Shown: piece after piece, positions 1,638 to 25,403 of the stretch
How the letters are laid out: the number at the start of each line of letters is the position of its first letter
Position numbering within the stretch: position 1 is the first letter of the stretch
From: a virus
Length of the DNA: 30,225 bases
Direction: 5' to 3' (one strand)
IMG/VR virus record: IMGVR_UViG_3300021363_000018
Span: 1 to 30,225 of that record
The notes under the pieces: generated by a model
Seen by the model: only the letters and a program-made list of their open reading frames with translations
Databases searched by the model: none
What the model was told of the DNA's origin: nothing
Translations under genes and position numbers: made by a program

Positions 1638-2564
1638 CTAACTGTTGAAGGTCTGGTAGTTCTCGAACAGCCGGAAGAGTCGGTCTCGTTCCTCGTTCAG
1701 CCGCTTCGTGTAGAGCGACAGGTACAACTGAGCAGCCTGAGCACCGGCACCGGTAGGCACGAGCGGAGCCCGCTCGGTCGCTTCGATGTTCTGCTGCTGG
1801 AGTCGTGCTGCTTCGTATGCAGGAAGCAGACGCCAGCAAGCGCCGTACACGATAAGGTCTACCACTCGCTCGGGAAGCCCTGATACCAGCTCGAAGTCAT
1901 CGCTGTTGCTTGAGAGTGTCGACGGCTTGGTTGTGTACGACACACGGACATCCCGTCCAGGAACCACGAAGTCATACAGCTGGATAGACCGGCCCGTAGG
2001 GGCCGGAGTAGGAGCAACCTGAGAACCGGTAGAAGCGAGAGCGTTGAAGCGCCACTTCTGCGAAGGGAACCAGACGCGAGACGGACCGATGGTATTGATG
2101 ACCACCTTGTACACATCCTCCGCCTCAGCGGGGATCGGGTACTCGTAGCGAGCTGCCTGATACGGGAACTCGTACTCTCCGAACACGAACAGATCCGGAT
2201 AGACTCCGTTGATCGTGTCGTTGATCGCTTCCTTGATACGCGACCGAGGGAACCTTGGGTCGTTGGTGATGATGTCGTTCAGCGCATGAGCGCTAGCAGT
2301 AGTACCTTCGGTACCACGGCCATTGGTTCCTGCCATCACGGTGACAGTGCCAGAAGGCCTGTCGAACTTCTTGACGAGAATCATCTCGTCACCGATCTCT
2401 ACCAGCCCCCTGGACAGGTTGGTAATCGTTTCTCCGTCAGCCTGGAACGTGATGTCCGTCGGAGCCATGGCTACCGTGAGGTAAGAGATAGAAGCCTGAT
2501 CCTTGGTGTAGCCAAGAAGCTGCTGCTTCACTCGGTCTACGATCTGGTCGAACGTGGTAGCCAT
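1638..2564 (-). CDS. Probable tail adaptor / head-tail connector-like protein
   Basis: 308 residues; ATG at 2562-2564 preceded by AAGGAGAG. The N-terminus (TFDQIVDRVKQQLLGYTKDQ) is helical. It is followed by a short beta domain (EIGDEMILVKKFD, AGTNGRGTEGT) and then RSRIKEAINDTINGVYPDLF, an arrangement seen in tail-adaptor or tubular proteins that seat on the portal of short-tailed phages. The C-terminal part is alpha-helical with VVDLIVYGACWRLLP and a charged end. It lies between a 155-residue beta protein and the lectin-tipped fibre, which fits a tail-tube or adaptor role. The family assignment is by architecture only; a baseplate- or collar-type protein is the alternative. Confidence 0.6.
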   Translation of the reverse strand: MATTFDQIVDRVKQQLLGYTKDQASISYLTVAMAPTDITFQADGETITNLSRGLVEIGDEMILVKKFDRPSGTVTVMAGTNGRGTEGTTASAHALNDIITNDPRFPRSRIKEAINDTINGVYPDLFVFGEYEFPYQAARYEYPIPAEAEDVYKVVINTIGPSRVWFPSQKWRFNALASTGSQVAPTPAPTGRSIQLYDFVVPGRDVRVSYTTKPSTLSSNSDDFELVSGLPERVVDLIVYGACWRLLPAYEAARLQQQNIEATERAPLVPTGAGAQAAQLYLSLYTKRLNEERDRLFRLFENYQTFNS

Positions 2565-2573: not shown

Positions 2574-3041
2574 TTAGCTTGCCATCAGGCTGGCATCAAC
2601 GGTTCCGCCGGTCATGATCGTAGTAACGTTCCCTCGGGCGTAACGCCAAGCACCGGTGATAGTCGCAGACGTGACGCCAGGAGCGGACTGCGTCACGGGA
2701 GTTCCCCGGAACCAGTTGGTGTTGTCCTGTGAGACTTCGAGGGCAACGGCCCCAGCGGATACACCGACGTTCGCAGTGATAGCGATGGTCAGGTTGGTCT
2801 TAGCCGACCCGAAGTCGGCTACGGCGCCGGGGCCGGTAGCGCTCGCTCCGGTGAGCGCCTTGCTCGATACAAGAGCGCCGGTCGTAACGACCAGGCCAGC
2901 TCCGAGGTTCGGTCCAGGAACGGCGATGTTAGCCGTCTGGCCGCCCTGTGAGACGCTTACGAACGAAGGAGCTGCCGCAGTGCCACCGGTAGTACCAGCG
3001 GTCGTTACAGTGCCTTCTACGCGTACTGTCATTTCAGCCAT
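2574..3041 (-). CDS. Small beta-rich virion protein, unknown role
   Basis: 155 residues, rich in Gly, Ala, Thr and Val, with no charged helical stretches. Strands such as TVRVEGTVTTAG and ALEVSQDNTNWFRGTPVT suggest one or two beta-sandwich domains. SQDNTNWF..TPV resembles small phage tail or decoration proteins that sit on virion surfaces. The start MAEMTVRVEG overlaps the end of the preceding gene (ATGGCTGA) and has GAGGGAGG about 10 nt upstream. Location among tail genes supports a structural role. Nothing identifies a specific function. Confidence 0.7.
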   Translation of the reverse strand: MAEMTVRVEGTVTTAGTTGGTAAAPSFVSVSQGGQTANIAVPGPNLGAGLVVTTGALVSSKALTGASATGPGAVADFGSAKTNLTIAITANVGVSAGAVALEVSQDNTNWFRGTPVTQSAPGVTSATITGAWRYARGNVTTIMTGGTVDASLMAS

Positions 3042-3288
3042 GGGCTTCTGCCTCCCTCATTGCGGCATCTGTCTGATGCTGCTTGGTTCCAGCAGGCTCT
3101 ACGCCTTGCCTTCGAGCTGAGTCGTAACTGTCAAGCTCTCGATCCCACGCCTTCTGGACGTTGGTGTCAGACAGGTTCGGAGCCAGGTTGAGCCGCTTGC
3201 TTCGGAGGCACTCTCCGAAGGTGCGATGATCCTTGGTGACGCAAGCCGCGCTACAGCGTAGGCCCGGCTTGAATTGCTTAGTGCTCAC
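3034..3288 (-). CDS. Small Cys-containing phage protein, unknown
   Basis: About 84 residues from the GTG at 3286-3288 (reads VSTKQFKPGLRC). A TTG at 3298-3300 would add four residues and is the alternative; neither has a strong ribosome site, and both overlap the previous gene, suggesting translational coupling. The N-terminus carries C..AC...DHRTFGEC, three cysteines and a histidine in about 20 residues, which could bind a metal. The rest is hydrophilic and helical (QKAWDRELDSYDSARRQG). I recall similar small proteins of unknown role in the structural modules of actinobacteriophages. Confidence 0.7.
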   Translation of the reverse strand: MSTKQFKPGLRCSAACVTKDHRTFGECLRSKRLNLAPNLSDTNVQKAWDRELDSYDSARRQGVEPAGTKQHQTDAAMREAEAHG

Positions 3289-3535
3289 CGACCAGTCCAA
3301 TCGCCTCGATCTGAGCGTGAGGAATCAGTACGATCTCGGTCTGGGGAGCGACGTGGATAGAACCACGGAACTTCACATACACCTGATCGAAGTCCAGAAC
3401 CTCGTAGTTCTGGAGAGTCCTTCCACCGGAGACGAGGTTCACCAGAGCGCCGACCTTCAAGAACGACGGAGGGACGGGCGGAGGAAAGAAGTCTTCGGGC
3501 TTGGGCTCTACGTTGATCTTCTTGGTCGGCGGCAT
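3278..3535 (-). CDS. Small protein with possible Sm-like beta domain, unknown
   Basis: 85 residues. The start ATG at 3533-3535 sits just after the TAA of the preceding gene, whose last codons supply AGGAGC as the ribosome site. The first ~25 residues are Pro/Lys-rich (EDFFPPPVPPSFLKVG). The rest alternates hydrophobic and polar residues in five probable strands (ALVNLVSG, YEVLDFDQVYVKF, TEIVLIPHAQIEAIG). The closing pattern recalls Sm/Hfq-like barrels, but that is a fold guess from strand spacing, not a recognised family. Flanked by small genes in the tail region. Confidence 0.65.
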   Translation of the reverse strand: MPPTKKINVEPKPEDFFPPPVPPSFLKVGALVNLVSGGRTLQNYEVLDFDQVYVKFRGSIHVAPQTEIVLIPHAQIEAIGLVGEH

Positions 3536-3536
3536 G

Positions 3537-3749
3537 TTACTTGCTCCTAGCGATTGCGGCGTTGCCCCAGAACATGACTTCTTCCAGGTGCGTGATAGCG
3601 AGGGCCTTCTCTCGGCCCTCGGGAAGCTTCTCGTTCAGGAAGTCCGCAAGCTGACGACAGTTCTCACGAACCGAAGTGTGCTCGTTGCGCTTCTCTTCCG
3701 TTGTCGCGGCGTGAAACGCGAAGCGGTTAGTGATGTCGTCAGGACTCAT
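3537..3749 (-). CDS. Small helical protein resembling the Acb2/Tad1 anti-defence family
   Basis: 70 residues, predicted all helical. It begins MSPDDITNRFAFHAATTEEK and ends EGREKALAITHLEEVMFWGN followed by AAIARSK. The RF.[FY]H start, the central R..C..LA..L....P.GREK and the closing LAIT.LEE.MFW.NAAIAR form a pattern I associate with the phage family now grouped with Acb2/Tad1. Characterised members bind cyclic nucleotide signals and blunt CBASS or Thoeris immunity. The similarity is recalled, not searched, and it is strongest in the C-terminal helix. ATG at 3747-3749 overlaps the preceding gene's stop. Placement inside the virion block would give late expression. It could instead be an unrelated structural-module protein. 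Confidence 0.6.
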   Translation of the reverse strand: MSPDDITNRFAFHAATTEEKRNEHTSVRENCRQLADFLNEKLPEGREKALAITHLEEVMFWGNAAIARSK

Positions 3750-3994
3750 TAGTCGTTGTCTCCTACGGAATTGGTGCGGTAGATGCCCTGCTTCTGCGAG
3801 TCGTGGTCCGACCCGAGGTCGGCCATCTTCGGAGTGGTGAACGCAGCGAGGTGGGTCTCAAGGATTCCCTTCTCGTTGTGCTCTACGTTGGTCGTGGTCC
3901 CAGCAGGACCACAGAGGGAGCAGGTGCAGCCGAGGTTGTGCGTGAACGTAGTGTCGCCCTCGGTCTTCGCTGGGTCGTAGCTCTTGTAGGTCAC
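3749..3994 (-). CDS. Small CxCxxC protein, unknown
   Basis: 81 residues from the GTG at 3992-3994 (MTYKSYDPAK), preceded by AAGGAGTTCGAA. The central segment HNLGCTCSLCG has a histidine and three cysteines and may hold a metal. The rest is hydrophilic (TTNVEHNEKGILETH, DLGSDHDSQKQG) with no membrane segment. The stop overlaps the start of the Acb2/Tad1-like gene by one base, so the two are probably translationally coupled. No function recognised. Confidence 0.7.
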   Translation of the reverse strand: MTYKSYDPAKTEGDTTFTHNLGCTCSLCGPAGTTTNVEHNEKGILETHLAAFTTPKMADLGSDHDSQKQGIYRTNSVGDND

Positions 3995-4004: not shown

Positions 4005-5345
4005 TTAGGACTGCTTCAAAATGATCCACCTGACGACCGAGGTATCGGTGGCAGATGTGGACTTGAGTGTGAAACTGGTTCCGGCAGTAAGGGCGCTCAC
4101 GAAGAGCGCCCCTTGAGTTCCACCAGGAGTGATAGCACTAGCCACCACAACGCTGTTGGTCGTGATAGCGGAGGTGGAAACAGTAACGGTGCCAGCCACT
4201 AGAGTGGCCTGGCCCGCAGTCGGGGTTCCGGTGTTACCTATCACCGTAGAACCGGCACCACTCAGATCGAGAGCGGCGAACGACCAGGCTCCGTCTGTGA
4301 CGATCATGTTGTGGCTGATGTTGTTGTTGCCGCCACCACCACTGGAAGACTCCCGGATAGCATCACGAGAAACCCCAGCGCCTGGAGCGCTGGCAATCAT
4401 GTTGCCGACGATCACGTTGGCACTGGTGCCGAACTCAAGGTAGACGCCGCTGGCCTGGCCTGCCGTACCAGCGATACCAGGAGAGAAGAACGTGTTGTTA
4501 GAGACGATGCACCGCTGCCCAGCGATGAAGACGTTGTCTCCAGACAGCCCGTCGAAGTTGCAGTTCGTCACCTTGGTAGACTTGGCGTTCTGGATCCAGA
4601 TGCCCTTGGAGTTGTTGGCTCCGTTGACGAAGTTGCACGAGTTGATGAAGTTCGTACCAGACTCGTCGTAGATAGAAGCCGCATTGGAGCCAGCTCCACC
4701 GAGGAACTCGAAGTCACAGAAGATGATCTGGTTCTCATCGTTGGACGTCATGTGAACGCCACGGCCAGAACCGGCAGACCCCGTGGTCTGGTCGAACAGG
4801 CAACCGATCACTCGGTTGACGTGACCGAAAGCACCGCCGGTAAGACCGGCAAGGAGAAGCGACTCGTCTCGGCAGAACGTGAAGTGGATGTTGCTGAACA
4901 GGCAGGCGATAGCGCCTGCGCCGTTGATGCCGCCACTCACTCCGGACTGCTGGAGATAGTTGCCGTCGATCTCAAGGTCTCGGACGGTGATCCTGGTATC
5001 CGTTCCACCGAACGTCAAGGCGTACGTGTTGACGTTGTTGCCAAGCTTGAGGGAAGTTCCCCAGCCTGACCCTTGAATGGTCAGGCCTTCACCAGCAGGG
5101 ATGTTAAGGGTCTGGTTCAGGATGTACACCCCAGCAGGGATGTAGACGATTCCTCCACCAGCGATAGCGGCAGCGTTGATAGCTGCCTGAATGCCAGGAG
5201 CATCGTTGTTCGAGCCGTTGCCCAGCGCTCCATACTCTTTGACGTTGAAGCTGATCTGGGTAAGTCGAGTGTCGATGCTAGCCGTTGCGGCGTTGAGCGG
5301 GACGTCCCAGTTGAGGGTTCCCCTTGGGATTGCGTAGTTAGTCAC
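4005..5345 (-). CDS. Tailspike with pectate-lyase-type right-handed beta-helix
   Basis: 446 residues. I place the start at the GTG 5343-5345 (VTNYAIPRGTLNWD) because AAGGAGGATTTG precedes it; the frame extends 10 codons further but only into the previous gene. An N-terminal ~45-residue attachment segment leads into VKEYGALGNGSNNDAPGIQA and AGGGIVYIPAGVY, the hallmark of the pectate-lyase-3 superfamily. About 280 residues of N-rich beta-helix coils follow (e.g. NVFIAGQRCIVSNNTFFSPG). The C-terminal ~80 residues are a Thr/Val-rich beta domain, likely for trimerisation or receptor contact. The inferred role is cell-surface glycan binding or degradation; no catalytic residues are assigned. Confidence 0.85.
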   Translation of the reverse strand: MTNYAIPRGTLNWDVPLNAATASIDTRLTQISFNVKEYGALGNGSNNDAPGIQAAINAAAIAGGGIVYIPAGVYILNQTLNIPAGEGLTIQGSGWGTSLKLGNNVNTYALTFGGTDTRITVRDLEIDGNYLQQSGVSGGINGAGAIACLFSNIHFTFCRDESLLLAGLTGGAFGHVNRVIGCLFDQTTGSAGSGRGVHMTSNDENQIIFCDFEFLGGAGSNAASIYDESGTNFINSCNFVNGANNSKGIWIQNAKSTKVTNCNFDGLSGDNVFIAGQRCIVSNNTFFSPGIAGTAGQASGVYLEFGTSANVIVGNMIASAPGAGVSRDAIRESSSGGGGNNNISHNMIVTDGAWSFAALDLSGAGSTVIGNTGTPTAGQATLVAGTVTVSTSAITTNSVVVASAITPGGTQGALFVSALTAGTSFTLKSTSATDTSVVRWIILKQS

Positions 5346-5721
5346 CAAATCCTCCTTCGCCAAAGCCGCCTTCACCGAAGCCGCCCCCGGGTATCAGTGT
5401 GAAGTTCGATTCATCGACCAGACCTGAACCGATCAGGCAAGCCTTGGTTGCGTCGTCTACGATGTGCTCGTATCCTCCGCGAAAGTAGTGCAAGCCAGCC
5501 GAAGGGGCTGGCCAGAAGTCTGTGTCTGTACCGTTCGGGTTTGGGGGCAGGTTCACTGCCCCAATCTCGTTGGTGTAAGCGTCGTACCGAACTGCTTCGT
5601 ACTGGCAAGGGGCTATTTCCTGAATGGAAATAGCTCGGTCCAAGCGGAACCGTTCCATCAACGAGTTCCAGGCAAAGGGAGCCTCCGAGACGGTCGGTGT
5701 GGTGAACAGCCATGTAGCCAC
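5338..5721 (-). CDS. Virion-module protein with Gly-rich C-terminal repeat
   Basis: 127 residues. It starts MATWLFTTPTVSEAPFAWNS, continues with a compact aromatic-rich domain (FRLDRAISIQEIAPCQYEAVRYD), and ends in a glycine-rich tail with three GGFGE/D units (GGGFGEGGFGEGGFGD). The last codons overlap the tailspike start by 8 bp and supply its ribosome site, so spike synthesis is probably coupled to this gene. No family was recognised. A tail or connector role is inferred from position between the capsid genes and tailspike. A 9-bp perfect stem-loop lies inside the coding region at 5612-5634. Confidence 0.75.
   Translation of the reverse strand: MATWLFTTPTVSEAPFAWNSLMERFRLDRAISIQEIAPCQYEAVRYDAYTNEIGAVNLPPNPNGTDTDFWPAPSAGLHYFRGGYEHIVDDATKACLIGSGLVDESNFTLIPGGGFGEGGFGEGGFGD
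5612..5634. other. Perfect stem-loop inside a coding region
   Basis: GCTATTTCC (5612-5620) and GGAAATAGC (5626-5634) are perfect inverted repeats around a 5-nt loop, TGAAT. A-T content is high for this genome. It lies within the Gly-tailed protein gene upstream of the tailspike. It may tune translation or be a protein-binding site. Confidence 0.6.
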
Positions 5722-6167: not shown

Positions 6168-7193
6168 CTAGCTAGTCGGGCGAGCAGTCGAAGTAGACTG
6201 AGCCACGATCAGCGACTCCGGACGGTACAGGTTCCAACCAGCAACGCCGTACCAGCCGAGAGGCTGGAACCGGGTCAGCTTGTCAACGACCGGACCACGG
6301 ACCGTGTGGAACTCTTCGGCAACCGCCTCAGCAAGAGCCTGCTGACCCGTGAAGTACGTGTTGTAAACACGCGACGCGCCAGCCGGAGCGGACGGACCCG
6401 AGTACGCAGCACCGGACTGCACGTTCTGAGCGCGAGGAGTCTCGATGTAGCAAGCACCTTCGTACTCGCCGATCTCGCCAGCCCAGATGTTGCCAGCCGC
6501 ACTGTAGTTGTGCGGGTCGCGCCACGCCGCAGCACCAGTCTCACGGCGCAGGTCGTAAGAGACCTGCGGGTGGATGTACGCGGTGTAGTAAGAGCCCTTG
6601 TTCGGGTGGACCTTGTTCGTCCGGAGCTGGGTCACCGAGAGGCGAGCCATGTCCGAAGAGAACGTGGAGAACGCGATGTTAGCGTCAGCCGCTCCACCGA
6701 TCTGGTTGACCGCGACAGGGTTGGTCGGCGTAGTGCCGAAGCCGTAGCCGATCGCACCAGCAGTACCAGAACGCCGCAGCGTCTGAGTACCAGTCGCAAG
6801 GACGTTCTGAACCAGAAGGTCGACAGAGTCGACAAGGTTCCACGCGACCTGGTTGACGAGACCAGCGGTCACGTCGGTGAAGCTGAACAGGTCCAGCTTG
6901 TTCGAGACCAGGATCGCGTTACCGTACTCGTTGAGAGTGACGGACACCGTGGTCGGGTTACCGGCCGCAACAGCGTCCGGGTCGACCAGCTCGTTCAGCG
7001 GAGTGATCTGCTGAGCAAGGTCCTGGTACAGCTCGAAGACGACGCTGGAACCAGGCATGGCCTGCTGAACCGGTCGCTTGTCAGCGACCATGCGGAACAT
7101 GGGCTGCGCACGCAGAGCGAACTCAAGCGCGCGGTCGTACGTGGTCTGAACGAGGTTCGCCATTGCGGCGGAACCGGTAAAGGCGTTAGCCAT
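6168..7193 (-). CDS. Major capsid protein, N4-gp56 type
   Basis: 341 residues; ATG at 7191-7193 preceded by GTGAGAG. The sequence reads as an HK97-fold capsid protein of the N4-gp56 family: an N-terminal helix (YDRALEFALRAQPMFRMVAD), then PGSSVVFELYQDLAQ, a long helical spine (LVNQVAWNLVDSVDLLVQN), HPQVSYDLRRETG...W.DPHNY, and IWAGEIGEYEGACYIETPR. It ends in the usual beta region (VDKLTRFQPLGWYGVAGWNL). Length is normal for the family. The scaffold gene lies directly upstream and a strong hairpin lies directly downstream. This is one of the firmest assignments in the window. Confidence 0.92.
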   Translation of the reverse strand: MANAFTGSAAMANLVQTTYDRALEFALRAQPMFRMVADKRPVQQAMPGSSVVFELYQDLAQQITPLNELVDPDAVAAGNPTTVSVTLNEYGNAILVSNKLDLFSFTDVTAGLVNQVAWNLVDSVDLLVQNVLATGTQTLRRSGTAGAIGYGFGTTPTNPVAVNQIGGAADANIAFSTFSSDMARLSVTQLRTNKVHPNKGSYYTAYIHPQVSYDLRRETGAAAWRDPHNYSAAGNIWAGEIGEYEGACYIETPRAQNVQSGAAYSGPSAPAGASRVYNTYFTGQQALAEAVAEEFHTVRGPVVDKLTRFQPLGWYGVAGWNLYRPESLIVAQSTSTARPTS

Positions 7194-7705: not shown

Positions 7706-7883
7706 TTGATCTCCCTTAGATGTGAGCGCCATACGTTCTAGCCAGGGGAGGCTAGTGCAGCTCGCTCGTTAGTTACCGGTCTTAGTACAAGTAAGAGGGC
7801 CGGTCGATCCCCTACTCGGCAACTGCGCTCGGCATCGAACCGAAGCCATGACCTGAGCCCCAACGCTCACGCAGCCGACATCT
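7706..7883 (-). promoter_or_regulatory. Non-coding gap upstream of scaffold/capsid genes
   Basis: A 178-bp gap, long for this compact block. It contains the stem-loop CTAGCC-AGGGGA-GGCTAG (7738-7755). On the minus strand TACTAA is a weak -10-like hexamer, but no good -35 was found. A T-arm-like fold lies at 7828-7844. The gap plausibly boosts or separates expression of the scaffold/capsid pair. Confidence 0.4.
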
Positions 7884-8978
7884 CTAGTGCTGGCCGCCCT
7901 TGCCTGCCAGGCCTGCCCTTGCTCCTCCGGTCGTGCCGCTGAACGCGCCACGCTCTTGCGACTGGAGCTTCCTCTTCTTCTCCGCTGCGGTACCGAGGCC
8001 TTCGAAGGTAGCCTCTTCCGATTCCCGCTGACCCCACTGCTCGCCGTAGATAGAACCGAGGTTCTTCATGGAACCGAGTTCGGATGCGATGTTCGCGTAG
8101 CCCTGTTGGGCTTCCGCGCCAGTGATGCCCTTCGTTGCCAGCTCGCCAGCATAAGCCTGATCGAACTGCAAGCCCTGAGCCAGAGCCTGGGCTCCGATCG
8201 CTGCGGTAGCAGCGCTCTTCTGCAAGTACGGGAGCGCCTTCGAGGAATCCAGGAAGTACGCTGTCATGTCGGTGTCCGAGATGCCCATAGAATTGAGCGC
8301 CTTGCGATAGTCCGGATTCGAAAGGATCGTCGCTTGAGTCGCCATGTCCACTCGCGACTGAACCTCGGTAGGACTGATGTCCTTCGTGAGGAAGTCGTTG
8401 AAGTCGGAAGGCTGGTCGTAGAAGCCGGGCGGCAGACCGGCTGACTGCATGATCTGACGGTAGCTGCTCTCTGCCGAGAGATATTCACCGGGCGAAAGTA
8501 CTGGTAGCCCGGCCTTCCTGCGAGTCTCATTCGCTGCGAAACGTTCCTTGTACTCTTTCGTATCCTGTAGCAGGATCGAGATGGTGTCGGCTCCGTAGCC
8601 GTTCTTCACGTAGTCGAAGATCTTCCCTGCCAGCGACTCCAGTCCGTAGTTCTTAAACAAACTGTTGATCGCCATGTAAGCGTCTCGCTCGGTGCCTTTG
8701 AGCAGGTTCTCGTACTGGCCGTTGGATTCCCAGACGGTGTTCTGGGCCTTTGCCTGAGCCGTCTTGAGACCGGCTAGCGGCTTCTGGTACGTAGCAAGCT
8801 GAGCGTTCAGCCTGAGCTTGGCCACTGCGTACTGAGCGTACGCAGCCGGGTTCTTAGTCCTGTCTGGAGCCTTGAGGGCCTTGATCTTCGCCTGGACGAT
8901 GCCGATGTTCTTGTTGGCTAGAGCGATCTGAGCGTTCAGCTTGTCCAATGCTGCCTGAGGGTCGATTGCTGTAGTCAT
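7884..8978 (-). CDS. Internal virion protein (third member of related set)
   Basis: 364 residues. The ATG at 8976-8978 overlaps the previous stop (ATGA). The N-terminal ~75 residues are a long Lys/Ala/Gln-rich helix or coiled coil (ALDKLNAQIALANKNIGIVQ). The middle carries ILLQDTKEYKERFAANETRR, which lines up with the LRNTKWWQETSDTRR-type segment of the two adjoining hydrolase-bearing proteins, followed by helical sequence. The C-terminus is Arg/Gly-rich (RGAFSGTTGGARAGLAGKGG). No enzymatic motif is visible. I infer a capsid-internal or ejection-channel protein co-delivered with its neighbours. Confidence 0.75.
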   Translation of the reverse strand: MTTAIDPQAALDKLNAQIALANKNIGIVQAKIKALKAPDRTKNPAAYAQYAVAKLRLNAQLATYQKPLAGLKTAQAKAQNTVWESNGQYENLLKGTERDAYMAINSLFKNYGLESLAGKIFDYVKNGYGADTISILLQDTKEYKERFAANETRRKAGLPVLSPGEYLSAESSYRQIMQSAGLPPGFYDQPSDFNDFLTKDISPTEVQSRVDMATQATILSNPDYRKALNSMGISDTDMTAYFLDSSKALPYLQKSAATAAIGAQALAQGLQFDQAYAGELATKGITGAEAQQGYANIASELGSMKNLGSIYGEQWGQRESEEATFEGLGTAAEKKRKLQSQERGAFSGTTGGARAGLAGKGGQH

Positions 8979-10258
8979 CAGTACTTCACCCCAAAGTCAG
9001 TAAGGACTTGATGCGCTACCTGCATGAGGCTGTCTTGCGCATTCTTCGTGGACTTCCACCTGTTGTCAGATCGCAGTTCGTTTTCGAACTGCCACATCGG
9101 CTTCACTGCGTTCGCTCCGGTCTGAGGGTCTTTGTACTGCAAGGCTTTCTTCATCGTCGGGTCGAACAGGTTGACGCTGCCAGAAGGCAGCTCAAGGATG
9201 TTGGCCATCGATTGCATGTACGGACTGGCAAGATCAGCGACAGACTTACCGCCATCGATCTCTTTCGACCAACCCGAGTACAGCGCCTTGGCGTTCCTGC
9301 GGATCTGGTCCTTGAAGTCCTGCTCCGTGGCCAAGCCACGGATGATGTTCCGGGCTCCGTTGGTATAGAAGCTGTCCGACATCTTCACGCCCATGTCGTA
9401 CGCGTACGACTGGAGAGCATCGATCTCCTGGCCACCCTGCCCCTGATGGATATCGCCAGCGAAGCTGACCGACTTGCCCATCTCGTAACGGAGGCGGGAC
9501 TCGTCCCAGCCGAGAGCGACCGAACCGTAAGCCCAGTCCTTCATCTTCTTGAGGAGTGCCGGTGTCTCTACCATGCCGATCTGGTTAGCGAGCTGACGGA
9601 CCTTGATGTACGCGTCATTCATGTCCTGCTTGGCTGTCGCGGGATCTCCGTACATCTTCGTCAGGTAAGTACGCTCCTTGTCGGAGCGTGTCTTGAACCA
9701 CTTCGTGTCGCGGAGGGAAGCTTGGAACTTCTCTGCCGTCCACTGTCCCTTGACTGCCTTGTTGAACAGCGCCTTCAACTCCGCGTTCGAGTCGAAGAGG
9801 GTCTGCACGAAGCCGTACTGTTCTGCTAGTTCCTTGGAGGACATCGGTGTGACGCTCCCTCCTGAACCGCTACTAGAACTCTTGCTGGACGATGAGACGG
9901 AGCCTCCGCCAGAGGCTCCTATCACCTTGTTCACGTACTGCCTGACGGTGTTGCCACCGTCCGACGCCTTGGAGTTCGGGTTCGGCTGGCCTGAGAACCA
10001 CATCGAAGCAGCACCCTCAGCGCCGTACTTCTTGTAGTAGCCTCCCAAGATCTTCCGGGCAACAGCGTCCTGAGCAGACGGACTGTCCCTGAACTGTTGC
10101 CATGTCATCGAGTGACCAAGGGCGGACTTCGTCCAGCCCGGGATGTTGGCCTTCATCACCTGGTACGCACCAACAGCGCCGATGCTGTTGACTACGTGAT
10201 AGTTGCCGCCGGACTCGATCTTCCGAATGCCGTAGAGGAGCTGGTCAAGAGTTGTCAC
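8978..10258 (-). CDS. Virion-associated transglycosylase-type protein (ejection protein)
   Basis: 426 residues from the GTG at 10256-10258, which overlaps the previous TGA and is preceded by GGAGGAAGT; an open frame further upstream lies inside the neighbour. Residues ~1-115 are a lytic-transglycosylase or lysozyme-like domain: IRKIESGGNYHVVNS with E15 as the likely catalytic acid, then GAVGAYQVM and an Ala-rich helix. A Ser/Gly linker follows (~116-136). Residues ~138-426 are helical and clearly paralogous to the C-terminal part of the NlpC/P60 protein (TAEKFQASLRDTKWF versus TPEKFQAELRNTKWW). Probable role: local cleavage of cell-wall glycan during DNA entry. Confidence 0.87.
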   Translation of the reverse strand: MTTLDQLLYGIRKIESGGNYHVVNSIGAVGAYQVMKANIPGWTKSALGHSMTWQQFRDSPSAQDAVARKILGGYYKKYGAEGAASMWFSGQPNPNSKASDGGNTVRQYVNKVIGASGGGSVSSSSKSSSSGSGGSVTPMSSKELAEQYGFVQTLFDSNAELKALFNKAVKGQWTAEKFQASLRDTKWFKTRSDKERTYLTKMYGDPATAKQDMNDAYIKVRQLANQIGMVETPALLKKMKDWAYGSVALGWDESRLRYEMGKSVSFAGDIHQGQGGQEIDALQSYAYDMGVKMSDSFYTNGARNIIRGLATEQDFKDQIRRNAKALYSGWSKEIDGGKSVADLASPYMQSMANILELPSGSVNLFDPTMKKALQYKDPQTGANAVKPMWQFENELRSDNRWKSTKNAQDSLMQVAHQVLTDFGVKY

Positions 10259-11565
10259 TGACTTCCTCCGGAGCTTACGAGGCCCATGTCCTTGAGGACT
10301 TTGAGGCCTGCCGACATGGTGGACGTCTGGGCCTTCGTAGTCTGACCCCAACGCGGGTCGTTCCGAAGCTGGGACTGGAAGTCGCTCAAGGTGAGTCCAA
10401 CGGGCTTCCCAGAAGCATCAAGGCCATTAAGAGCAGACTTGATGAGAGGGTCATCAAGTTGAATCGAGTTGTCCGGGAGTTCAAGTTCACCTGCCATCGT
10501 CTGGATGTACGGAGACGCGATGTCGCGCACCGTAGTTCCGGCGTCGATAGCATCGGCATAGGAAGGGTAAGCCGACTTGGCCATGTTCCTGATCTCCGAC
10601 TGGAAGTCTTGCGTTGTCGCTACCTTCTTGACCACAAGCTGTGCCTGGTTCTTGATCGCCTGGTCCGACAGGGATACGCCGTTGTTGTACGCGTACTCTT
10701 TCATCGTGAACTCGTGCATCCCAGCTTCACCCTTGAGCGTGCCTTCCTTCGTGAAGGTCACGTACTGAGCGAGAGCGTTACGCAGAAGGTCTTCGTCCAT
10801 GCCGCCTTCGATCGCGTTTTGCGCGATCTTCTTGAGCTTCGATGCTGGCACTGCTGCGCCCATCTCTGCTGCGAGCTGCTGGATCTTGATCTCCTGCGCT
10901 TGGATGCTGGCGTCCCACGTTGCCGGGTCTGTGGACTTCATGACCTGAGCCTGACGTCTGGTGTCAGACGTCTCTTGCCACCACTTCGTATTCCGAAGCT
11001 CGGCCTGGAACTTCTCAGGCGTCCAGGTCTCCGAGACCGCAGTCTTGAAGAGGCCTTTGAGCGTGGAGTTAGAGTTCATGAAGCCGTACGCCCAGCCGTA
11101 GCTAGCTGCCAGCTCTTCGGGCGTCATCTTCTTCGAGGCTTCTACGCTCATGTCAGACGCGCTAGAACCAACGGCCGAAGTTCCGTCGATACGCCTGCCA
11201 CCAACGAACGAGTCAGCGTAGTAACCAGACGTCATGTCTGCTATCTCCACGCCCTTGCCGGGGCGAGGAGCGTTAATCATCTTGCCATCACCGATGTAGA
11301 TACCAACATGGTCAGGGCCGGAAGTCTTGCCGTTGGTCTCGAAGAAGACCAGATCGCCAGGCTTGAGGCCTTTGATGCCGATAGGAGCACCCTGGCCGAT
11401 CTGGTCGTACGTCGTACGGGGAAGGCTGATGCCGAAGTGCTTGTACACCTGCTGTACCAGGCCCGAGCAGTCGATACCCCCGGTGAGGCTGTTGCCTCCC
11501 CAGACGTACTTCGTTCCTAGGAACTGCTGAGCGAACGCACCGATGTCGTTGCCTGATACCGTCAT
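10255..11565 (-). CDS. Virion-associated NlpC/P60 peptidase (ejection protein)
   Basis: 436 residues; ATG at 11563-11565, with GGAGGATAA from the previous gene's end as ribosome site. Residues ~1-110 form an NlpC/P60 domain: GGIDCSGLVQQVY with Cys33 nucleophile, LKPGDLVFFET, DHVGIYIGDGKMINAPRPG with His86; the third catalytic position is an Asn (N98) rather than the commoner His. Residues ~147-436 are helical and paralogous to the next gene's C-terminal region (ASPYIQTMAGELELP versus ASPYMQSMANILELP). The domain cleaves peptide stems of peptidoglycan. The fusion to an internal-protein module suggests use during entry, not final lysis. Confidence 0.88.
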   Translation of the reverse strand: MTVSGNDIGAFAQQFLGTKYVWGGNSLTGGIDCSGLVQQVYKHFGISLPRTTYDQIGQGAPIGIKGLKPGDLVFFETNGKTSGPDHVGIYIGDGKMINAPRPGKGVEIADMTSGYYADSFVGGRRIDGTSAVGSSASDMSVEASKKMTPEELAASYGWAYGFMNSNSTLKGLFKTAVSETWTPEKFQAELRNTKWWQETSDTRRQAQVMKSTDPATWDASIQAQEIKIQQLAAEMGAAVPASKLKKIAQNAIEGGMDEDLLRNALAQYVTFTKEGTLKGEAGMHEFTMKEYAYNNGVSLSDQAIKNQAQLVVKKVATTQDFQSEIRNMAKSAYPSYADAIDAGTTVRDIASPYIQTMAGELELPDNSIQLDDPLIKSALNGLDASGKPVGLTLSDFQSQLRNDPRWGQTTKAQTSTMSAGLKVLKDMGLVSSGGSQ

Positions 11566-18864: not shown

Positions 18865-20673
18865 TTAGATTGGGGCTTGACGCTGACTGCGGACCGATGC
18901 TGTTGCTTGTCCCGAACTGGTCAAACCGCTAAGCAAGGTCTGTAGGTCCATACCTTGCGCTTGCTGAGGTGCACCGGGAACGCCCGCAGGAGCCCCCTGA
19001 GGGGCCCCGCCTGGTGCTGGTGCACCGCTACCACCCAGGAGAGCTTCTAGGCCGCCAGGGGCCTGCTGAGGCTGCTCCTTGGGCTTGAACACCTTGAGGA
19101 CGGCATCGTGAACCGGGTCGCCCTTCTCTCTGAGCCTGATGAGTTCAGCGATCTTGGAGATCGCGTCTCCCACGTCACCCTGGCCCTGCTGGGCCATGGG
19201 CAGGATCGACTGAGCGTAAGCCATGACGCCCTGCTTGAGGGAGTCGGTGAACTGCTCCACATCGATCTGAGACTGCATCTGCACAACGTCGATGTTCATC
19301 GGAAGCTGTCGCTGGAAGAAGTCTCGTGAGATGAGCTGATCACCACGAAGTTGGAGAAGACCCACGATCGCACGAGCGGGGTCCTGACCAGCAGCAAAAC
19401 CATAAGTGACATCCACGGTGTAGTCACCGTCAATGTCTTTAGCCGGAGTATACGTGTCCTCGAACGGAGTTCCCTGAACGGTGCCACGGACTGTCTTCTT
19501 CTCCTTCGGCCACAGCTTCTCGTCCATCTCGAAGCAGAGTTCAAGCGCTCCTGCGAGCGCTTCGGAGAGAACAGTCTGCCCTGTGGTGATGACCGTGTTG
19601 AATCCGCCCATCAGAGCCTGAACGCCTCGGCCCGTGATGACCGATGCGTCCATATTCCCGGAGCGGGCTTCTGGTGTACGCGTTCCTACGCGAAGCTCTT
19701 GTTCGAGCATCGCGCCTTCCTGGAAGGCTGCCGAAGGAACGTCGATCCCGACGCGCCGGATCTTCTCAGGACTGTCGGTACGGATGATCGCGTCGTCTCC
19801 GAACGTCATCTTCTGAACGTCCCTGGGGACGGCGAGAGGAGCGCGTACCGTCTTCTCTGTAGCTTCCAGTCCGAGCAAGGCCATGCGGGCCTTGGCGAGC
19901 TGAACCCAAATGGCGTCGTCGTAAGCGCCTCGGGTTTCCCTGTCGTAGCCGGGCCTGTGTCCGATGGACACGAAGACCTTCTTCATCGGGTTGGGCATCA
20001 TCGAGATGACCGTGTTGCCGTGGTTCGGCATGTACATGATGATCTGGTCGGAGTCGGTATACTTGATGACTTCGATCTCACGCTCTGCCCAGCCGACCTC
20101 TTCTCCACCAACTTCGTTGGACTGGAGGATTCGCATCAGCTCGGGGAACATCGCGGCGAGGTGGATAGCCTCTTCGCGCCAGACCTTCGTGTAGCTCTTG
20201 ATCCTGCCGAACATGTCGAACTCGGGGTAGACGCCCATAGGGTTCTCTACCCGGATGTGCGGACGCTTCTCCACGAAGTCCGGCTCGATCACATAGATCG
20301 CCAGACCGAACGTCGTGTAATGATCAGCGCAGACAACCTGCCGTCCGGCGTTGAGGCCGGACCGCTGTACGTAGTAGTTGGCTACCTTGGTCTTCTTGCT
20401 GGAGTACTTCTTCGCTCTATCCGTGGTAAGGATGCCAGTCGAGCAATTGATGCTCGGCATAGCTCCCATTACCTCCGCTACGTCCCTGGCCGAAGTGTCG
20501 ATCAGGTTGGCAACGATAGGCTTGGGCCATGCGTCAGGCATGGCTCCTGGAGTTACAGTCTCGATGTCGCCTGAGCGGACATCGTGAACGTCATTGAACC
20601 TCTGGTCACGACCAGCGGCAGCACGGCGCAGTGAGTCGACCTTCTGTGCGATGTTATCGATGAGCAGCGCCAT
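18865..20673 (-). CDS. Portal protein
   Basis: 602 residues from the ATG at 20671-20673, preceded by AAGGAGGTGACACC. The N-terminal ~300 residues have the mixed alpha/beta layout of portal wings (IVANLIDTSARDVAEVMGAM; RPHIRVENPMGVYPEFDMFG). The middle contains GAYDDAIWVQLAKARMALLG and then ARSGNMDASVITGRGVQALM, which fits the stem and crown helices. The C-terminal ~100 residues are Gln/Pro/Gly/Ala-rich and disordered. Length and position near the large terminase agree with a dodecameric portal ring through which DNA is packaged. The family is assigned by layout, not by a single diagnostic motif. Confidence 0.82.
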   Translation of the reverse strand: MALLIDNIAQKVDSLRRAAAGRDQRFNDVHDVRSGDIETVTPGAMPDAWPKPIVANLIDTSARDVAEVMGAMPSINCSTGILTTDRAKKYSSKKTKVANYYVQRSGLNAGRQVVCADHYTTFGLAIYVIEPDFVEKRPHIRVENPMGVYPEFDMFGRIKSYTKVWREEAIHLAAMFPELMRILQSNEVGGEEVGWAEREIEVIKYTDSDQIIMYMPNHGNTVISMMPNPMKKVFVSIGHRPGYDRETRGAYDDAIWVQLAKARMALLGLEATEKTVRAPLAVPRDVQKMTFGDDAIIRTDSPEKIRRVGIDVPSAAFQEGAMLEQELRVGTRTPEARSGNMDASVITGRGVQALMGGFNTVITTGQTVLSEALAGALELCFEMDEKLWPKEKKTVRGTVQGTPFEDTYTPAKDIDGDYTVDVTYGFAAGQDPARAIVGLLQLRGDQLISRDFFQRQLPMNIDVVQMQSQIDVEQFTDSLKQGVMAYAQSILPMAQQGQGDVGDAISKIAELIRLREKGDPVHDAVLKVFKPKEQPQQAPGGLEALLGGSGAPAPGGAPQGAPAGVPGAPQQAQGMDLQTLLSGLTSSGQATASVRSQRQAPI

Positions 20674-21451: not shown

Positions 21452-23413
21452 CTATGCCCACCATTCCGCTGTTGATGCGCCGGTCGACGCCATGCTCAGA
21501 TAGTCGAGGTCGACTGTCGTCTGCTTGCTCTTGTCCCTTGGGGACTGGTACTCGTTGTTGACGTGGAACAAGCCTTCGATGTTGTTCACCATCTCGCGGG
21601 CTCTTGTCTCTGCGAACCACAGTGCCATCACGCAGTCCTGCTTAGCTTTGGACTGAGGGAACCACGTGCACAACTGCTCTACCAGAGACTTGATGCCTTC
21701 TGCCTGAGACCGGCTAGGGAGCCGGATCAGTCCCTTGCCTTCCTTCGAACCGTCGAAGAGCATCGACATAGAAGCAACGCCGAAGTCGACGTCGTTCTTG
21801 TTCGAGCCGGTAAAGTGCTCACGGAGCAAGCAGCCACGGGAACCCAGGAAGTTGCGTAGGTCACGGTTCTGCGTGACCATCAGGTTCATCGCGTTCTTCT
21901 CGATGGCCCACTCGTTTACGTGGTACTTGACTGTCCACTCTTTGATCTTGTCGAAGAGGTCGTCCGGCTTACAATTGGGCCTGGTCCAAACGTCCAGTAC
22001 CCACCGCACTCCCGACATTCGATCGACACCGATGATAACGGCGGCAGAGTGTCCGGTGATAGCAGGGTCAAACCCTCCGATGATGTACAGACCGTCCATA
22101 CCGTGTGCTCGGTGGCCTGGGGCACCGGGGGACATGAAGCCCGCCGCTCGCATGCCGTCGATTGAAGCGACAACCTTGTCGGTGGGGAATATGGCATCTT
22201 CTACGACCTGTTCCTGTTGATAGACCATGGCCCAGTTCTGAGGCGAGCTTGTGGCTCGCCGTCTGGCCAGAGACTTTCCGGAGTGCCAAGGATAGAGACC
22301 GTCCTCATTGGATACAACCAGCTTTCTTGCTCCAAGTGATACTGGTGGCCGGTTGGTCCAGGGTGCGAGAACATGCCAGTCGTCGGGATCGTCTGCGAAC
22401 TCAAGGACTGCTGGCTGAGTGAGGTAGGTCCAGGGGCTGACTTCGTCCTGTCCGTACCACTCTGGCTTCTGGATCTCTGAGTAGAGCTCCACGGGAGCCA
22501 GACGTGTTCCCACCAGTAGGAGAGTCCCGCCTGGGTAGGAGAGCCGGTTGATGACCTCTCGCTGAATCCAGTCGATCTGCTTGGCGAACTCATGAGCGTT
22601 CTTTCCTGTCACTGTGTCGTCAAGGATGATGAGGTCAGCTCGGTTGCCGTAGATCTGTCCGGTCATGCCCAGCGCCTGAACGGTAGGCGTAGCTTCACCG
22701 GAGTCACGAGTCTCAGCGTTGATGTAGATAGAGTCCGCTGTCCACGAAGCCGAGTTCGCATCGAACCCGCCCTCAGGAGCGAAGTCCATCTGGAGCTTAC
22801 GGTACGAAGGGTTGGCTCCAGAGAGCCGGTCCTTAACGGCCCGGAGGAATCGCTTCGCCATCTCCTGCGTCTGAGACACGATGATGATACGGATGTTCGG
22901 GTCTTGGCAGATCTTCCACGTCGTGTAGTTCACGGTGATCGTCGTAGACTTCGAGTGCTCCGGAGGTGTGTTCACGATGACCATGCCAGGGTCTCCCTGA
23001 ACGAAGACCTGGTTGGTATGCAGGTCCCTAGGGGGCCTGCCTTCGAGGATGTCGAACCACTGGAGCTGATGCCAGAAGAGCTGGGTGTCGAGGTACTTCA
23101 TGCAGAACTCAGGGAAGTCGGGGACTCCCTCGCGAACCTCAGCGGCGCCAGCGGCTGTCTTCAACAGCTTCAAGCGTTCGTACGACTCTTTGAAGTTCGG
23201 ATCGTTCTTTACGTAGTACGTTACCGTTTGCGGAGTGATACCTACGTCCCTGCAAGCCTGGGACATCGACAGGCCTTGCTTCATGTACGCAAGGATGCTG
23301 TCCTTCTTCTCTTGCATCGTTCGGTTCACTGGACGGCCGGGCTTCTTGCCCGGCGGCTTCTTCGGCTGAGACAGGAACGGCTTGCCGTCCTCGTCCACGT
23401 AGATTGTAGCCAC
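21452..23413 (-). CDS. Terminase large subunit with N-terminal helix-turn-helix
   Basis: 653 residues from the GTG at 23411-23413, 8 nt after AAAGGAGAG. Residues ~31-80 form a helix-turn-helix (ILAYMKQGLSMSQACRDVGI then TPQTVTYYVKND), normally found in a separate small terminase. The ATPase has a Walker-A-like TPPEHSKSTT (149-158) and Walker B ADLIILDD (259-266). The C-terminal RNase-H-like nuclease shows FDPAITGH (D449), WAIEKNA (E505) and QDCVMALWFAE (D593) as likely metal ligands. It powers packaging and cuts concatemers. No separate TerS gene is seen in the window. It is the first gene of the leftward block, next to the candidate promoter/operator. Confidence 0.93.
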   Translation of the reverse strand: MATIYVDEDGKPFLSQPKKPPGKKPGRPVNRTMQEKKDSILAYMKQGLSMSQACRDVGITPQTVTYYVKNDPNFKESYERLKLLKTAAGAAEVREGVPDFPEFCMKYLDTQLFWHQLQWFDILEGRPPRDLHTNQVFVQGDPGMVIVNTPPEHSKSTTITVNYTTWKICQDPNIRIIIVSQTQEMAKRFLRAVKDRLSGANPSYRKLQMDFAPEGGFDANSASWTADSIYINAETRDSGEATPTVQALGMTGQIYGNRADLIILDDTVTGKNAHEFAKQIDWIQREVINRLSYPGGTLLLVGTRLAPVELYSEIQKPEWYGQDEVSPWTYLTQPAVLEFADDPDDWHVLAPWTNRPPVSLGARKLVVSNEDGLYPWHSGKSLARRRATSSPQNWAMVYQQEQVVEDAIFPTDKVVASIDGMRAAGFMSPGAPGHRAHGMDGLYIIGGFDPAITGHSAAVIIGVDRMSGVRWVLDVWTRPNCKPDDLFDKIKEWTVKYHVNEWAIEKNAMNLMVTQNRDLRNFLGSRGCLLREHFTGSNKNDVDFGVASMSMLFDGSKEGKGLIRLPSRSQAEGIKSLVEQLCTWFPQSKAKQDCVMALWFAETRAREMVNNIEGLFHVNNEYQSPRDKSKQTTVDLDYLSMASTGASTAEWWA

Positions 23414-23583: not shown

Positions 23584-23600
23584 GGGGCCCTCAAGGCCCC
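23584..23600. terminator. GC-rich hairpin
   Basis: GGGGCC (23584-23589) and GGCCCC (23595-23600) with loop CTCAA. There is no U-tract on either side, so terminator function is only possible. Confidence 0.4.
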
Positions 23601-23605
23601 CGTCC

Positions 23606-23745
23606 TACCAAGCTCCCCGTAGCTTGTCGTTCAGCCGGTGCCTCGCTGGGGGCTCGTCCCCGTCTGGTCTTACCAAGCTTACACATATAGTGTGCACCCT
23701 CCAGTGGGGGCATGGTGGAACGTACGTTACCAAGTCTTTACCAAC
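23606..23745 (+). repeat. Four TACCAA[G/C] short direct repeats
   Basis: TACCAAG occurs at 23606-23612, 23671-23677 and 23728-23734, and TACCAAC at 23739-23745, all in the same orientation. The first two are followed by CT. Spacing is irregular (65, 57, 11 bp). They could be binding sites for an initiator or regulator; short repeats can also arise by chance. Confidence 0.4.
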
Positions 23746-23762
23746 TATCGACGGAGCGTGAC

Positions 23763-23780
23763 GATACACTGGGGTGTATC
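23763..23780. other. Stem-loop GATACAC-TGGG-GTGTATC
   Basis: A 7-bp perfect stem with a 4-nt loop in the gene-free region. A-T content is higher than in the surrounding genome. Function unknown. Confidence 0.5.
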
Positions 23781-23842
23781 TCACTGAGCGTATACATGTG
23801 GAACCTTAGACTTCATTTACCGCAGGAATTTGGGGGAGGTCT

Positions 23843-23857
23843 CACACACACACACAC
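23843..23857 (+). repeat. CA dinucleotide run
   Basis: Seven tandem CA units plus a C. It opens about 400 bp rich in CA/TG steps and in ACATG words, unlike the coding DNA on either side. Confidence 0.8.
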
Positions 23858-23996
23858 GGCCCTGATTTAACAATGCCCGGGTCCACATGTCACTGTGTGT
23901 CGAGACATCGTGTCACATGGGTGAGCATGGTAGGACATGGGAGATGTGTCCGTGGTGTCCGAGTTTGCTGGCTCAGATGAGCAGGGTGCAGCTCAG

Positions 23997-24006
23997 GTGT
24001 GCACAC
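23997..24006. repeat. 10-bp palindrome GTGTGCACAC and related GTGTGCAC repeats
   Basis: GTGTGCAC occurs exactly at 23690-23697, 23997-24004 and 24175-24182, with a one-mismatch copy (GTGTGCAT) at 24038-24045. The copy at 23997 extends to a perfect 10-bp palindrome. Iteron-like sites are possible. Confidence 0.4.
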
Positions 24007-24060
24007 AGGGTGTTGCGGGCTGCATAGATATGTATGTGTGTGCATGATGATGCGATGTGC

Positions 24061-24108
24061 CTGCGTATGCAAGGTGAATCACGTGATATGGCTGCGTATC
24101 CATGGTGA
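24061..24108 (+). repeat. 17-bp imperfect direct repeat flanking palindrome ATCACGTGAT
   Basis: CTGCGTATGCAAGGTGA (24061-24077) and CTGCGTATCCATGGTGA (24092-24108) match at 15 of 17 positions. Between them lies the perfect 10-bp palindrome ATCACGTGAT (24078-24087). The spacing is 31 bp, about three helical turns. This is a plausible protein-binding array for replication or transcription control. Confidence 0.55.
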
Positions 24109-24329
24109 TGAGGCCTGTTTGCCTTGGATTCGGGGGAAGCGACAGTCTACTGAACGGCCACACAGTAAGGCTACGTGTGCACCACACGCTCATCCACACG
24201 CCTGTCTATCCGTTCTGTGTACCCACAGGGGGCATGAGCACAGACCAGACATCACGGGCATCCATGCTTAACGCTCGTCTAAGACGCTCGTAAGAAAGCG
24301 TTCGCACTCAGCCTCACGACAGCAAAGTT

Positions 24330-24358
24330 AGGGCCTTACAGAGGCCCTCAGGGGCCTC
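24330..24358. promoter_or_regulatory. Mutually exclusive hairpins
   Basis: AGGGCCT (24330-24336) can pair with AGGCCCT (24342-24348), or GAGGCCC (24341-24347) can pair with GGGCCTC (24352-24358). Both stems are 7 bp and share the central strand, as in an attenuator-like switch. Confidence 0.45.
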
Positions 24359-24469
24359 CTGGGAGGTGTTCTGTCCTGGTGTGTCCTGGCTTGGTAGCCT
24401 GAGATGTCCAGGTTTGGCTGCATCTTCCGAAGAGTTTCAAGATTCTTCTGTGTTTCTTCCTCCGCTGGT

Positions 24470-24488
24470 CAGGGCCTTGAGGGCCCTG
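24470..24488. other. Hairpin CAGGGCC-TTGAG-GGCCCTG
   Basis: A perfect 7-bp stem with a 5-nt loop in the gene-free region; no U-tract follows. Confidence 0.45.
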
Positions 24489-24510
24489 CCTTGGCGTCTG
24501 CCTTGTCCTG

Positions 24511-24548
24511 TTTCATCCTCCGCGTTCGCAGCTTCGCGTTTGATGAAA
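24511..24548. other. Two-part stem TTTCATC / GATGAAA enclosing CGCG / CGCG
   Basis: An outer 7-bp inverted repeat (24511-24517 with 24542-24548) brackets an inner CGCG pair. The 5' arm overlaps TTCATCCTCCGC, which recurs exactly at 25096-25107. Confidence 0.4.
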
Positions 24549-24659
24549 AGTAGAAGACCTGGCAATGTTCTGGGTGTCACCACAGCAACACAGCCGCTAG
24601 CACAGGGCAGAGGCGCTGGAAGCACTAGATGCGGCGTGACAGGTAATCCTTAACTGAAC

Positions 24660-25002
24660 AGTCTCCACACCAGGTGACCGTGCAAGCGGGTCACGTCGGT
24701 CCTCGTAAGAGGGGCGGCGGGCGTATCAGTCAGACGCCAGAACCAGCGACCTCGGGTGACTAGTGGACCTCGCAAGGGTCCTCGAAGGGAGGAGAACTGT
24801 TGTTCCTTGAGAACTCCATAGAGCGTAAAGACCCCCTGACAACACGGGGGCCGCACCGTAGTCCCTTAGCAGGGCGAGCGGCTGGCACATGCTGCAACCA
24901 CTGAGAATGGCTGGCCAACCCGCTACGTAAGGCTGCGACGGTGCGTTCTCTCTCTCCAACAGGCGCAAGTCTGTTGGGTTCAAGCACCGCTCAAGGTGCT
25001 TG
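24660..25002 (+). ncRNA. Candidate structured non-coding RNA or leader
   Basis: At least six hairpins occur within about 340 nt: GTGACC/GGTCAC (24674-24694), CCTC-GTAA-GAGG (24701-24712), GGACCT/GGGTCC (24765-24781), CCCCC/GGGGG (24832-24850), CCAACAG/CTGTTGG (24956-24977) and CAAGCACC/GGTGCTTG (24981-25002). The last two are adjacent, strong and near-terminator in form. Strand is assumed plus, toward the small-gene block, but hairpins read equally on either strand. No known RNA family recognised. Confidence 0.4.
24945..24957 (-). other. Orphan purine leader on the minus strand
   Basis: Reads GGAGAGAGAGAAC on the minus strand, nearly the same as the GGGAGAGAGAAC leader of the small plus-strand genes, but no start codon follows at the usual distance. 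Confidence 0.4.
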
Positions 25003-25116
25003 GATTTCCCTAACTCAGGGGCTCATGGTCATGCAAGTGGTCATGTGGCTCCTGAGGGTGGTGGGTGAGCCTGGCAGGCTTTCGCAGTTGCCTTGTTCAT
25101 CCTCCGCCCTGGACTT

Positions 25117-25154
25117 CCACGCTTCAGCGTGGCGGTACTGATGGGAGAGAGAAC
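25117..25154 (+). promoter_or_regulatory. Intergenic cassette A: hairpin plus GGGAGAGAGAAC leader
   Basis: CCACGC-TTCA-GCGTGG (25117-25132) is followed by GGGAGAGAGAAC (25143-25154), one base before the ATG. The leader serves as the ribosome site for the first small gene. Confidence 0.65.
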
Positions 25155-25155
25155 T

Positions 25156-25368: not shown

Positions 25369-25384
25369 ACACCAGGCAGACGCT

Positions 25385-25403
25385 ACGGGCCCTTAAGGCC
25401 CGT
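25385..25403 (+). terminator. Hairpin ACGGGCC-CTTAA-GGCCCGT (cassette B)
   Basis: A perfect 7-bp stem, 16 bp after the preceding stop. There is no U-tract. Equivalent in position to the hairpins after other genes of this block. Confidence 0.6.

What the first reader, a model, noticed from the sequence alone, without database searches (positions are those of the whole stretch)
3537..3749. Possible anti-CBASS/anti-Thoeris sponge protein inside the virion operon
The 70-residue product has the all-helical length and the closing GREKALAIT.LEE.MFW.NAAIAR pattern that I associate with the Acb2/Tad1 group. Studied members sequester cyclic nucleotide immune signals. Seen: the motif and the late-operon position between small tail-region genes. 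Inferred: a defence-evasion role. Late or virion-linked expression of such a protein would be notable.
Basis: partly seen in the sequence, partly recalled or inferred. Interest (0 to 1): 0.75.

Follow-up and report, generated by a model that had tools for sequence, protein, structure and literature searches.

The report
Acb2-type immune-signal sponge in phage capsid operon
A phage of soil actinobacteria (probably Streptomyces) carries, among its capsid and tail genes, a small protein of a known family that soaks up the signal molecules bacteria use to trigger antiviral defence; the family is known, but relatives of this phage keep different versions of it at almost the same spot in their genomes.

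Summary
The 70-aa ORF at 3537-3749 (minus strand) matches Pfam PF24729 (Acb2_Tad1_hairpin) with E 3e-21, 75.7 bits against a cut-off of 27. The founding T4 Acb2 (Vs.4) matches the same model. AlphaFold2 predicts a short helix plus a long antiparallel hairpin, and BFVD fold matches are nearly all Acb2/Tad1-hairpin proteins. Codon-position differences to homologues show it is a translated gene. The window is the virion operon of an uncultured relative of Streptomyces Beephvirinae podophages; acb2 overlaps the preceding stop codon (TAATG) 2.4 kb downstream of the major capsid gene. Best explanation: a cyclic-nucleotide sponge made together with the capsid. Ligand binding and expression timing could not be tested. 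The N-terminal aromatic and T4's Thr68 are conserved (F12, T53), but the base-stacking Phe82 is Ala67, so the ligand may differ. The position is not unique. Nine of 50 related virus records carry an Acb2 in the same cluster, in three adjacent gaps; ten cultured Beephvirinae-type phages lack it. Sponge identity does not follow capsid identity (83% sponge/76% capsid against 37%/90%), which points to repeated acquisition. New member of a known kind, with a modestly interesting recurrent slot.

The parts
3537..3749 (-). acb2-like gene, 70 aa, Acb2/Tad1 hairpin protein
   Evidence: Pfam PF24729 75.7 bits; phrog_1454; third-codon-position divergence; AF2 model
3546..3716 (-). stretch encoding the Acb2_Tad1_hairpin domain (residues 12-68)
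3749..3751 (-). stop codon of the preceding gene, overlapping the acb2 ATG (TAATG; likely translational coupling)
   Evidence: sequence
3760..3764 (-). AGGAG ribosome-binding-site-like sequence for acb2
   Evidence: sequence
3749..3994 (-). 81-aa conserved gene (phrog_11906) upstream of acb2; one edge of the variable slot
3278..3535 (-). 85-aa gene downstream of acb2; predicted small five-stranded barrel resembling Hfq/Sm
3034..3300 (-). 88-aa Cys-rich conserved gene (phrog_10483); other edge of the slot
4005..5375 (-). tailspike-like protein with K1-lyase C-terminal domain
6168..7193 (-). major capsid protein, 74% identical to that of Beephvirinae Streptomyces phages
1638..2564 (-). SU10-type adaptor protein downstream in the same operon
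18865..20673 (-). portal protein, same strand
21452..23413 (-). large terminase, same strand

Best explanation
The gene encodes an Acb2-type nucleotide sponge. Shown: it is a genuine gene, a member of the Acb2/Tad1-hairpin family, predicted to fold as a short N-terminal helix plus a two-helix hairpin, placed 2.4 kb downstream of the major capsid gene on one strand and overlapping its upstream neighbour. Inferred from studied relatives: it assembles into an oligomer (hexamer in Acb2) and binds cyclic di- or trinucleotides made by CBASS cyclases, possibly Thoeris-type ADP-ribose signals, so that the death effector is not switched on. Inferred from position: it is made late together with the capsid proteins. 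Since some CBASS and Thoeris systems are set off by capsid or capsid-processing proteins, this would supply the sponge when the alarm is raised.
For: PF24729 75.7 bits against a cut-off of 27, and T4 Acb2 Vs.4 matches the same model with 71.4 bits. A profile of 36 homologues finds solved 'Acb2 homolog 43' (9ptq, E 2.6e-8) and Tad1 chains (E 2.5e-5) in the PDB. [quoted passage not shown] BFVD top matches are Acb2/Tad1-hairpin proteins at probability 1.00. T53 aligns with T4 Thr68, whose T68M change is reported to lower binding affinity. The gene is under coding constraint. Its mobility across unrelated phages and gaps is typical of an accessory counter-defence gene. Capsid or prohead proteins trigger some Thoeris and CBASS systems (PMC11312562).
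Against: No binding or infection data for this protein. The CDN-stacking Phe82 of T4 is Ala67 here, so cyclic dinucleotide binding may be weaker or the ligand different. Foldseek against the PDB gave no significant match; T4 Vs.4 was only rank 4, E 3.1. Late expression is inferred from gene order; no sigma-70-like promoter was found near the gene, and that scan does not cover phage or actinobacterial promoters.
Confidence: 0.8

Rival explanations
1. It is a sponge, but mainly for a non-CBASS signal such as Thoeris gcADPR (a Tad1-like specificity on the short Acb2 scaffold) or another nucleotide messenger.
For: The profile matches Tad1 chains in the PDB. The Phe82 equivalent that stacks CDN bases in T4 Acb2 is Ala67 here. 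The Pfam model spans Acb2 and Tad1.
Against: The protein lacks the N-terminal beta-sheet described for Tad1 and has the short N-terminal helix described for Acb2. Its best PDB hit is an Acb2 homologue.
Confidence: 0.25
2. The hairpin has been recruited as a small virion or assembly component and no longer acts as a sponge.
For: Position among structural genes, tightly coupled to its neighbours; other small conserved genes of unknown role flank it.
Against: It is optional: 41 of 50 related records and all ten cultured Beephvirinae-type phages searched lack it. Close homologues sit in unrelated phages, and beside DNA-metabolism genes.
Confidence: 0.08
3. A passenger gene that is expressed but no longer useful.
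For: None specific; patchy distribution would allow it.
Against: Strong bias to third-position changes against several homologues, intact frame and ribosome-binding site.
Confidence: 0.04

Closest known systems
Acb2 (T4 Vs.4, PDB 7uq2; PaMx33/PaP2-type Acb2, PDB 8h2j and 8ixz)
   Same: Same Pfam model PF24729; short N-terminal helix plus antiparallel hairpin; T53/W61 align with T4 Thr68/Trp76; aromatic F12 at the profile position of T4 Tyr8.
   Different: 70 aa against 88-94 aa; T4 Phe82 is Ala67; direct sequence identity is very low; T4 vs.4 lies outside the structural genes.
Acb2 homolog 43 (PDB 9ptq, 76 aa)
   Same: Best sequence match among solved structures: 42-44 residues around LPEGREKS..T.LEE.MF.
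   Different: Lacks the W61 equivalent in the aligned stretch (AMFFATKAAA); its biology could not be read here.
Tad1 (7uav, 8kbe)
   Same: C-terminal hairpin with SRENA.ALTHVEEALMWMN motif.
   Different: Tad1 has an extra N-terminal beta-sheet, absent here.
Putative Acb2 of Microbacterium phage Statler and other cluster EG phages (PMC13348362)
   Same: Actinobacteriophage Acb2 call made from sequence only.
   Different: Different phage type (EG siphoviruses), function also untested.
phrog_1454 proteins of Mycobacterium, Gordonia and Streptomyces phages (e.g. Ibantik gp60, 77% identical)
   Same: Same family; mostly annotated 'hypothetical protein'.
   Different: Various genome positions: near thyX/DNA polymerase, ahead of terminase, after holin, next to portal.

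Membership tests
Acb2/Tad1 hairpin family (PF24729) | Match to the curated model above its gathering score | tested here: met
   75.7 bits against 27; 35 of 35 aligned members also match
[quoted passage not shown]
   AF2 helices 3-9, 18-41, 46-68, mean pLDDT 87.6; BFVD matches to Acb2/Tad1-hairpin proteins at probability 1.00. PDB Foldseek E-values were not significant
Acb2 | Cyclic dinucleotide contact residues of T4 Acb2 (Tyr8, Thr68, Phe82) | tested here: inconclusive
   Thr68 = T53; Tyr8 corresponds to aromatic F12 by Pfam coordinates; Phe82 corresponds to A67, not conserved. Roles of the T4 residues: PMC12657218, PMC12657230
Acb2 | Homohexamer assembly | not testable with these tools
   No multimer prediction or biochemistry available
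Acb2 | Binds and releases intact cyclic oligonucleotides; blocks CBASS | not testable with these tools
   Needs purified protein and infection assays
Tad1 | N-terminal antiparallel beta-sheet fused to the hairpin | tested here: not met
   70-aa all-helical prediction, no strands; Tad1 architecture from PMC12043709
Beephvirinae (Streptomyces podophages), host genome | Shared capsid gene and gene order | tested here: met
   MCP 74% to Immanueltrevirus; same order of tail, MCP, g127, tailspike, g81, g88, adaptor genes

The most novel reading that the evidence does not exclude
Beephvirus-like phages keep a fixed accessory slot a few genes downstream of the capsid gene that has been filled several times over, independently, with different Acb2-family sponges. 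The sponge is then translated together with the capsid proteins that set off CBASS or Thoeris: counter-defence timed to the trigger rather than to early infection.
Probability: 0.35. Interest if true: 0.55.

Novelty: new member of a known kind. Interest (0 to 1): 0.38.

Why it matters
It gives a function prediction to a gene family labelled 'hypothetical' in hundreds of actinobacteriophage genomes (phrog_1454). It also points to a capsid-operon slot where sponges come and go, which makes the timing of sponge production relative to capsid sensing testable: related podophages with and without the gene exist.

Tried and rejected
1) Chance motif: rejected. 2) Overlapping plus-strand ORF 3501-3752 as the real gene: rejected, since constraint lies on the minus frame. 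3) Tad1 proper: rejected for lack of the N-terminal sheet. 4) PADLOC and NCBIfam searches gave nothing. 5) Foldseek against the PDB was uninformative for such a short hairpin. 6) hhalign of the family profile against T4 Acb2 covered only 19 columns at low probability; the shared Pfam model is the better link. 7) A single origin of the beephvirus Acb2s: no bootstrap tree shows one, but the AU test does not reject it (p 0.10), so multiple origin rests mainly on the mismatch with capsid identity. 8) A second Acb2 elsewhere in these genomes: not found, one match per record.

Full report
What is there. The ORF at 3537-3749 on the minus strand encodes MSPDDITNRFAFHAATTEEKRNEHTSVRENCRQLADFLNEKLPEGREKALAITHLEEVMFWGNAAIARSK. 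It hits exactly one Pfam family, PF24729 Acb2_Tad1_hairpin, over residues 12-68 at 75.7 bits with a gathering score of 27, and PHROG 1454, a family without assigned function. T4 Vs.4, the structurally solved Acb2, scores 71.4 bits against the same Pfam model. Homologues occur in 317 phage records at E<=1e-5 and 402 at E<=0.01, mostly of Mycobacterium, Paenibacillus, Gordonia and Streptomyces; nearly all of the records listed are annotated hypothetical. Compared with six close homologues, changes fall mainly at third codon positions, and an AGGAG lies 10 nt before the ATG, which overlaps the previous stop codon as TAATG. It is therefore a real, constrained, probably translationally coupled gene.

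Fold. An AlphaFold2 model from 35 natural homologues has mean pLDDT 87.6, with helices at 3-9, 18-41 and 46-68. [quoted passage not shown] Against predicted viral structures nearly all of the top matches are named Acb2/Tad1 hairpin proteins at probability 1.00, although only two have E<=0.001. Against the PDB no match is significant, which is usual for a short hairpin; T4 Vs.4 with cGAMP appears at rank 4 with E 3.1. By sequence profile, the PDB entries found are 'Acb2 homolog 43' and Tad1 chains.

Ligand residues. hhalign pairs T53 and W61 with T4 Thr68 and Trp76 and A67 with Phe82, but covers only 19 columns at 32% probability. Pfam coordinates put F12 at T4 Tyr8 and give the same pairing of A67 with Phe82. 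T4 Y8A and F82C abolish or weaken binding (PMC12657218), and T68M is reported to lower affinity (PMC12657230). So part of the pocket is kept and one stacking residue is missing; which nucleotide is bound cannot be predicted.

Genome context. The window is a 30-kb IMG/VR virus record. From high to low coordinate on one strand it encodes terminase, endolysin, portal, a 1754-aa protein, tail proteins, major capsid protein, two small genes, tailspike, an 81-aa gene, the acb2-like gene, an 85-aa gene, an 88-aa gene, a 155-aa gene, an SU10-type adaptor and a lectin-like tail protein. The capsid protein is 74% identical to that of Beephvirinae, Streptomyces podophages such as Immanuel3 and Treat, and gene order agrees. 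The host is therefore probably a Streptomyces or related actinomycete. Bacterial contigs with close homologues of the gene belong to Streptomyces, Amycolatopsis and Nonomuraea.

A recurrent slot. In ten cultured Beephvirinae-type phages there is no PF24729 match anywhere in the genome, and in those inspected the 81-aa and 88-aa genes are neighbours or nearly so. I fetched the 80 best capsid-matched loci from IMG/VR and searched 50 of the underlying records for PF24729: nine have a match, one each, and all nine lie in this cluster (positions). Two more, L006 and L012, were found through the sponge itself. All lie on the capsid strand 0.6-3.4 kb downstream of the capsid gene, but in three adjacent gaps: between the 81-aa gene and the 85/88-aa genes (window, L006, L012, L062, L073, L088, L097, L106, L127), between the 85- and 88-aa genes (L100), and before the 81-aa gene (L098, L125).

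Repeated acquisition. Sponge and capsid identities do not run together: the window is 83% identical to L006 in the sponge and 76% in the capsid, but 37% to L073 in the sponge and 90% in the capsid. The window's sponge is also up to 86% identical to sponges of phages whose terminases are only 36% identical (L003, L005). In the protein tree the beephvirus sponges need about five changes of label, and no bootstrap tree puts them in one group. The short alignment does not formally reject one group, however (AU p 0.10), and some branches are long. Horizontal replacement is well supported; the number of events is not.

How it most likely works. By analogy with studied relatives, the protein sequesters nucleotide alarm signals so that CBASS or Thoeris effectors stay off. 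Acb2 and other sponges act by binding and not degradation (PMC12657218, PMC12043709). The position suggests synthesis with the capsid. Thoeris in staphylococci is triggered by the major head protein, E. coli CBASS can be triggered by a prohead protease, and capsid mutations let Pseudomonas and Staphylococcus phages escape CBASS (PMC11312562). A sponge made with the capsid would be present when the signal appears. This timing argument is inference: no transcript data were available, and the promoter scan found nothing usable. Placement at or within structural operons also occurs in other phages: ahead of terminase in Bernal13, Juliette, Jasmine and Ibantik, beside portal in Chidiebere, after holin in Bing. 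Others hold the gene next to thyX and DNA polymerase (LoneWolf) or thyX and tRNAs (Kudefre). So virion-operon placement is one of several arrangements and not a first.

Verdict. The protein is a new member of a known kind. The modest new element is a capsid-operon slot that repeatedly receives different Acb2-family genes.

Noticed in passing
window 3278-3535 (-), homologues in about 45 loci such as L051:11267-11479: The 85-aa gene directly downstream of acb2 is conserved in related phages and has no PHROG or Pfam match. It is predicted as a small five-stranded barrel whose best PDB matches are mostly Hfq/Sm proteins (probability 1.00, E 0.03-0.2). A phage-encoded Hfq/Sm-like protein in a virion operon would be unusual, but the E-values are weak.
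   Followed up: partly
window around 7732-7884: Cultured Beephvirinae carry an array of about 15-22 tRNA genes just before the capsid/scaffold genes. The window has the same gene order there but ARAGORN finds no tRNA anywhere.
   Followed up: partly
window 8978-10351 and 10255-11565 (-): Two neighbouring tail genes are paralogues: both match phrog_6654, and each cross-hits the other's orthologue in Treat.
   Followed up: no
window 21452-23413 (-): The 653-aa terminase has large-subunit matches over 58-620 and small-subunit matches at residues 19-80, suggesting a fused small and large terminase or a borrowed N-terminal domain.
   Followed up: no
L053 and L054, between the 85-aa and 88-aa gene homologues (about 12283-13660 in L053): A 439-aa ORF is inserted at the same junction where other relatives carry Acb2, so the cluster may accept other accessory genes as well.
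   Followed up: no
L150 (Gordonia phage Chidiebere) 3998-6289: An Acb2-like gene sits between the portal gene and genes annotated RNA ligase and VIP2-like ADP-ribosyltransferase, another virion-operon placement.
   Followed up: no
window 23600-30225: The five ORFs tested from this end of the window had no PHROG or PADLOC match, and what this region does is unknown.
   Followed up: no
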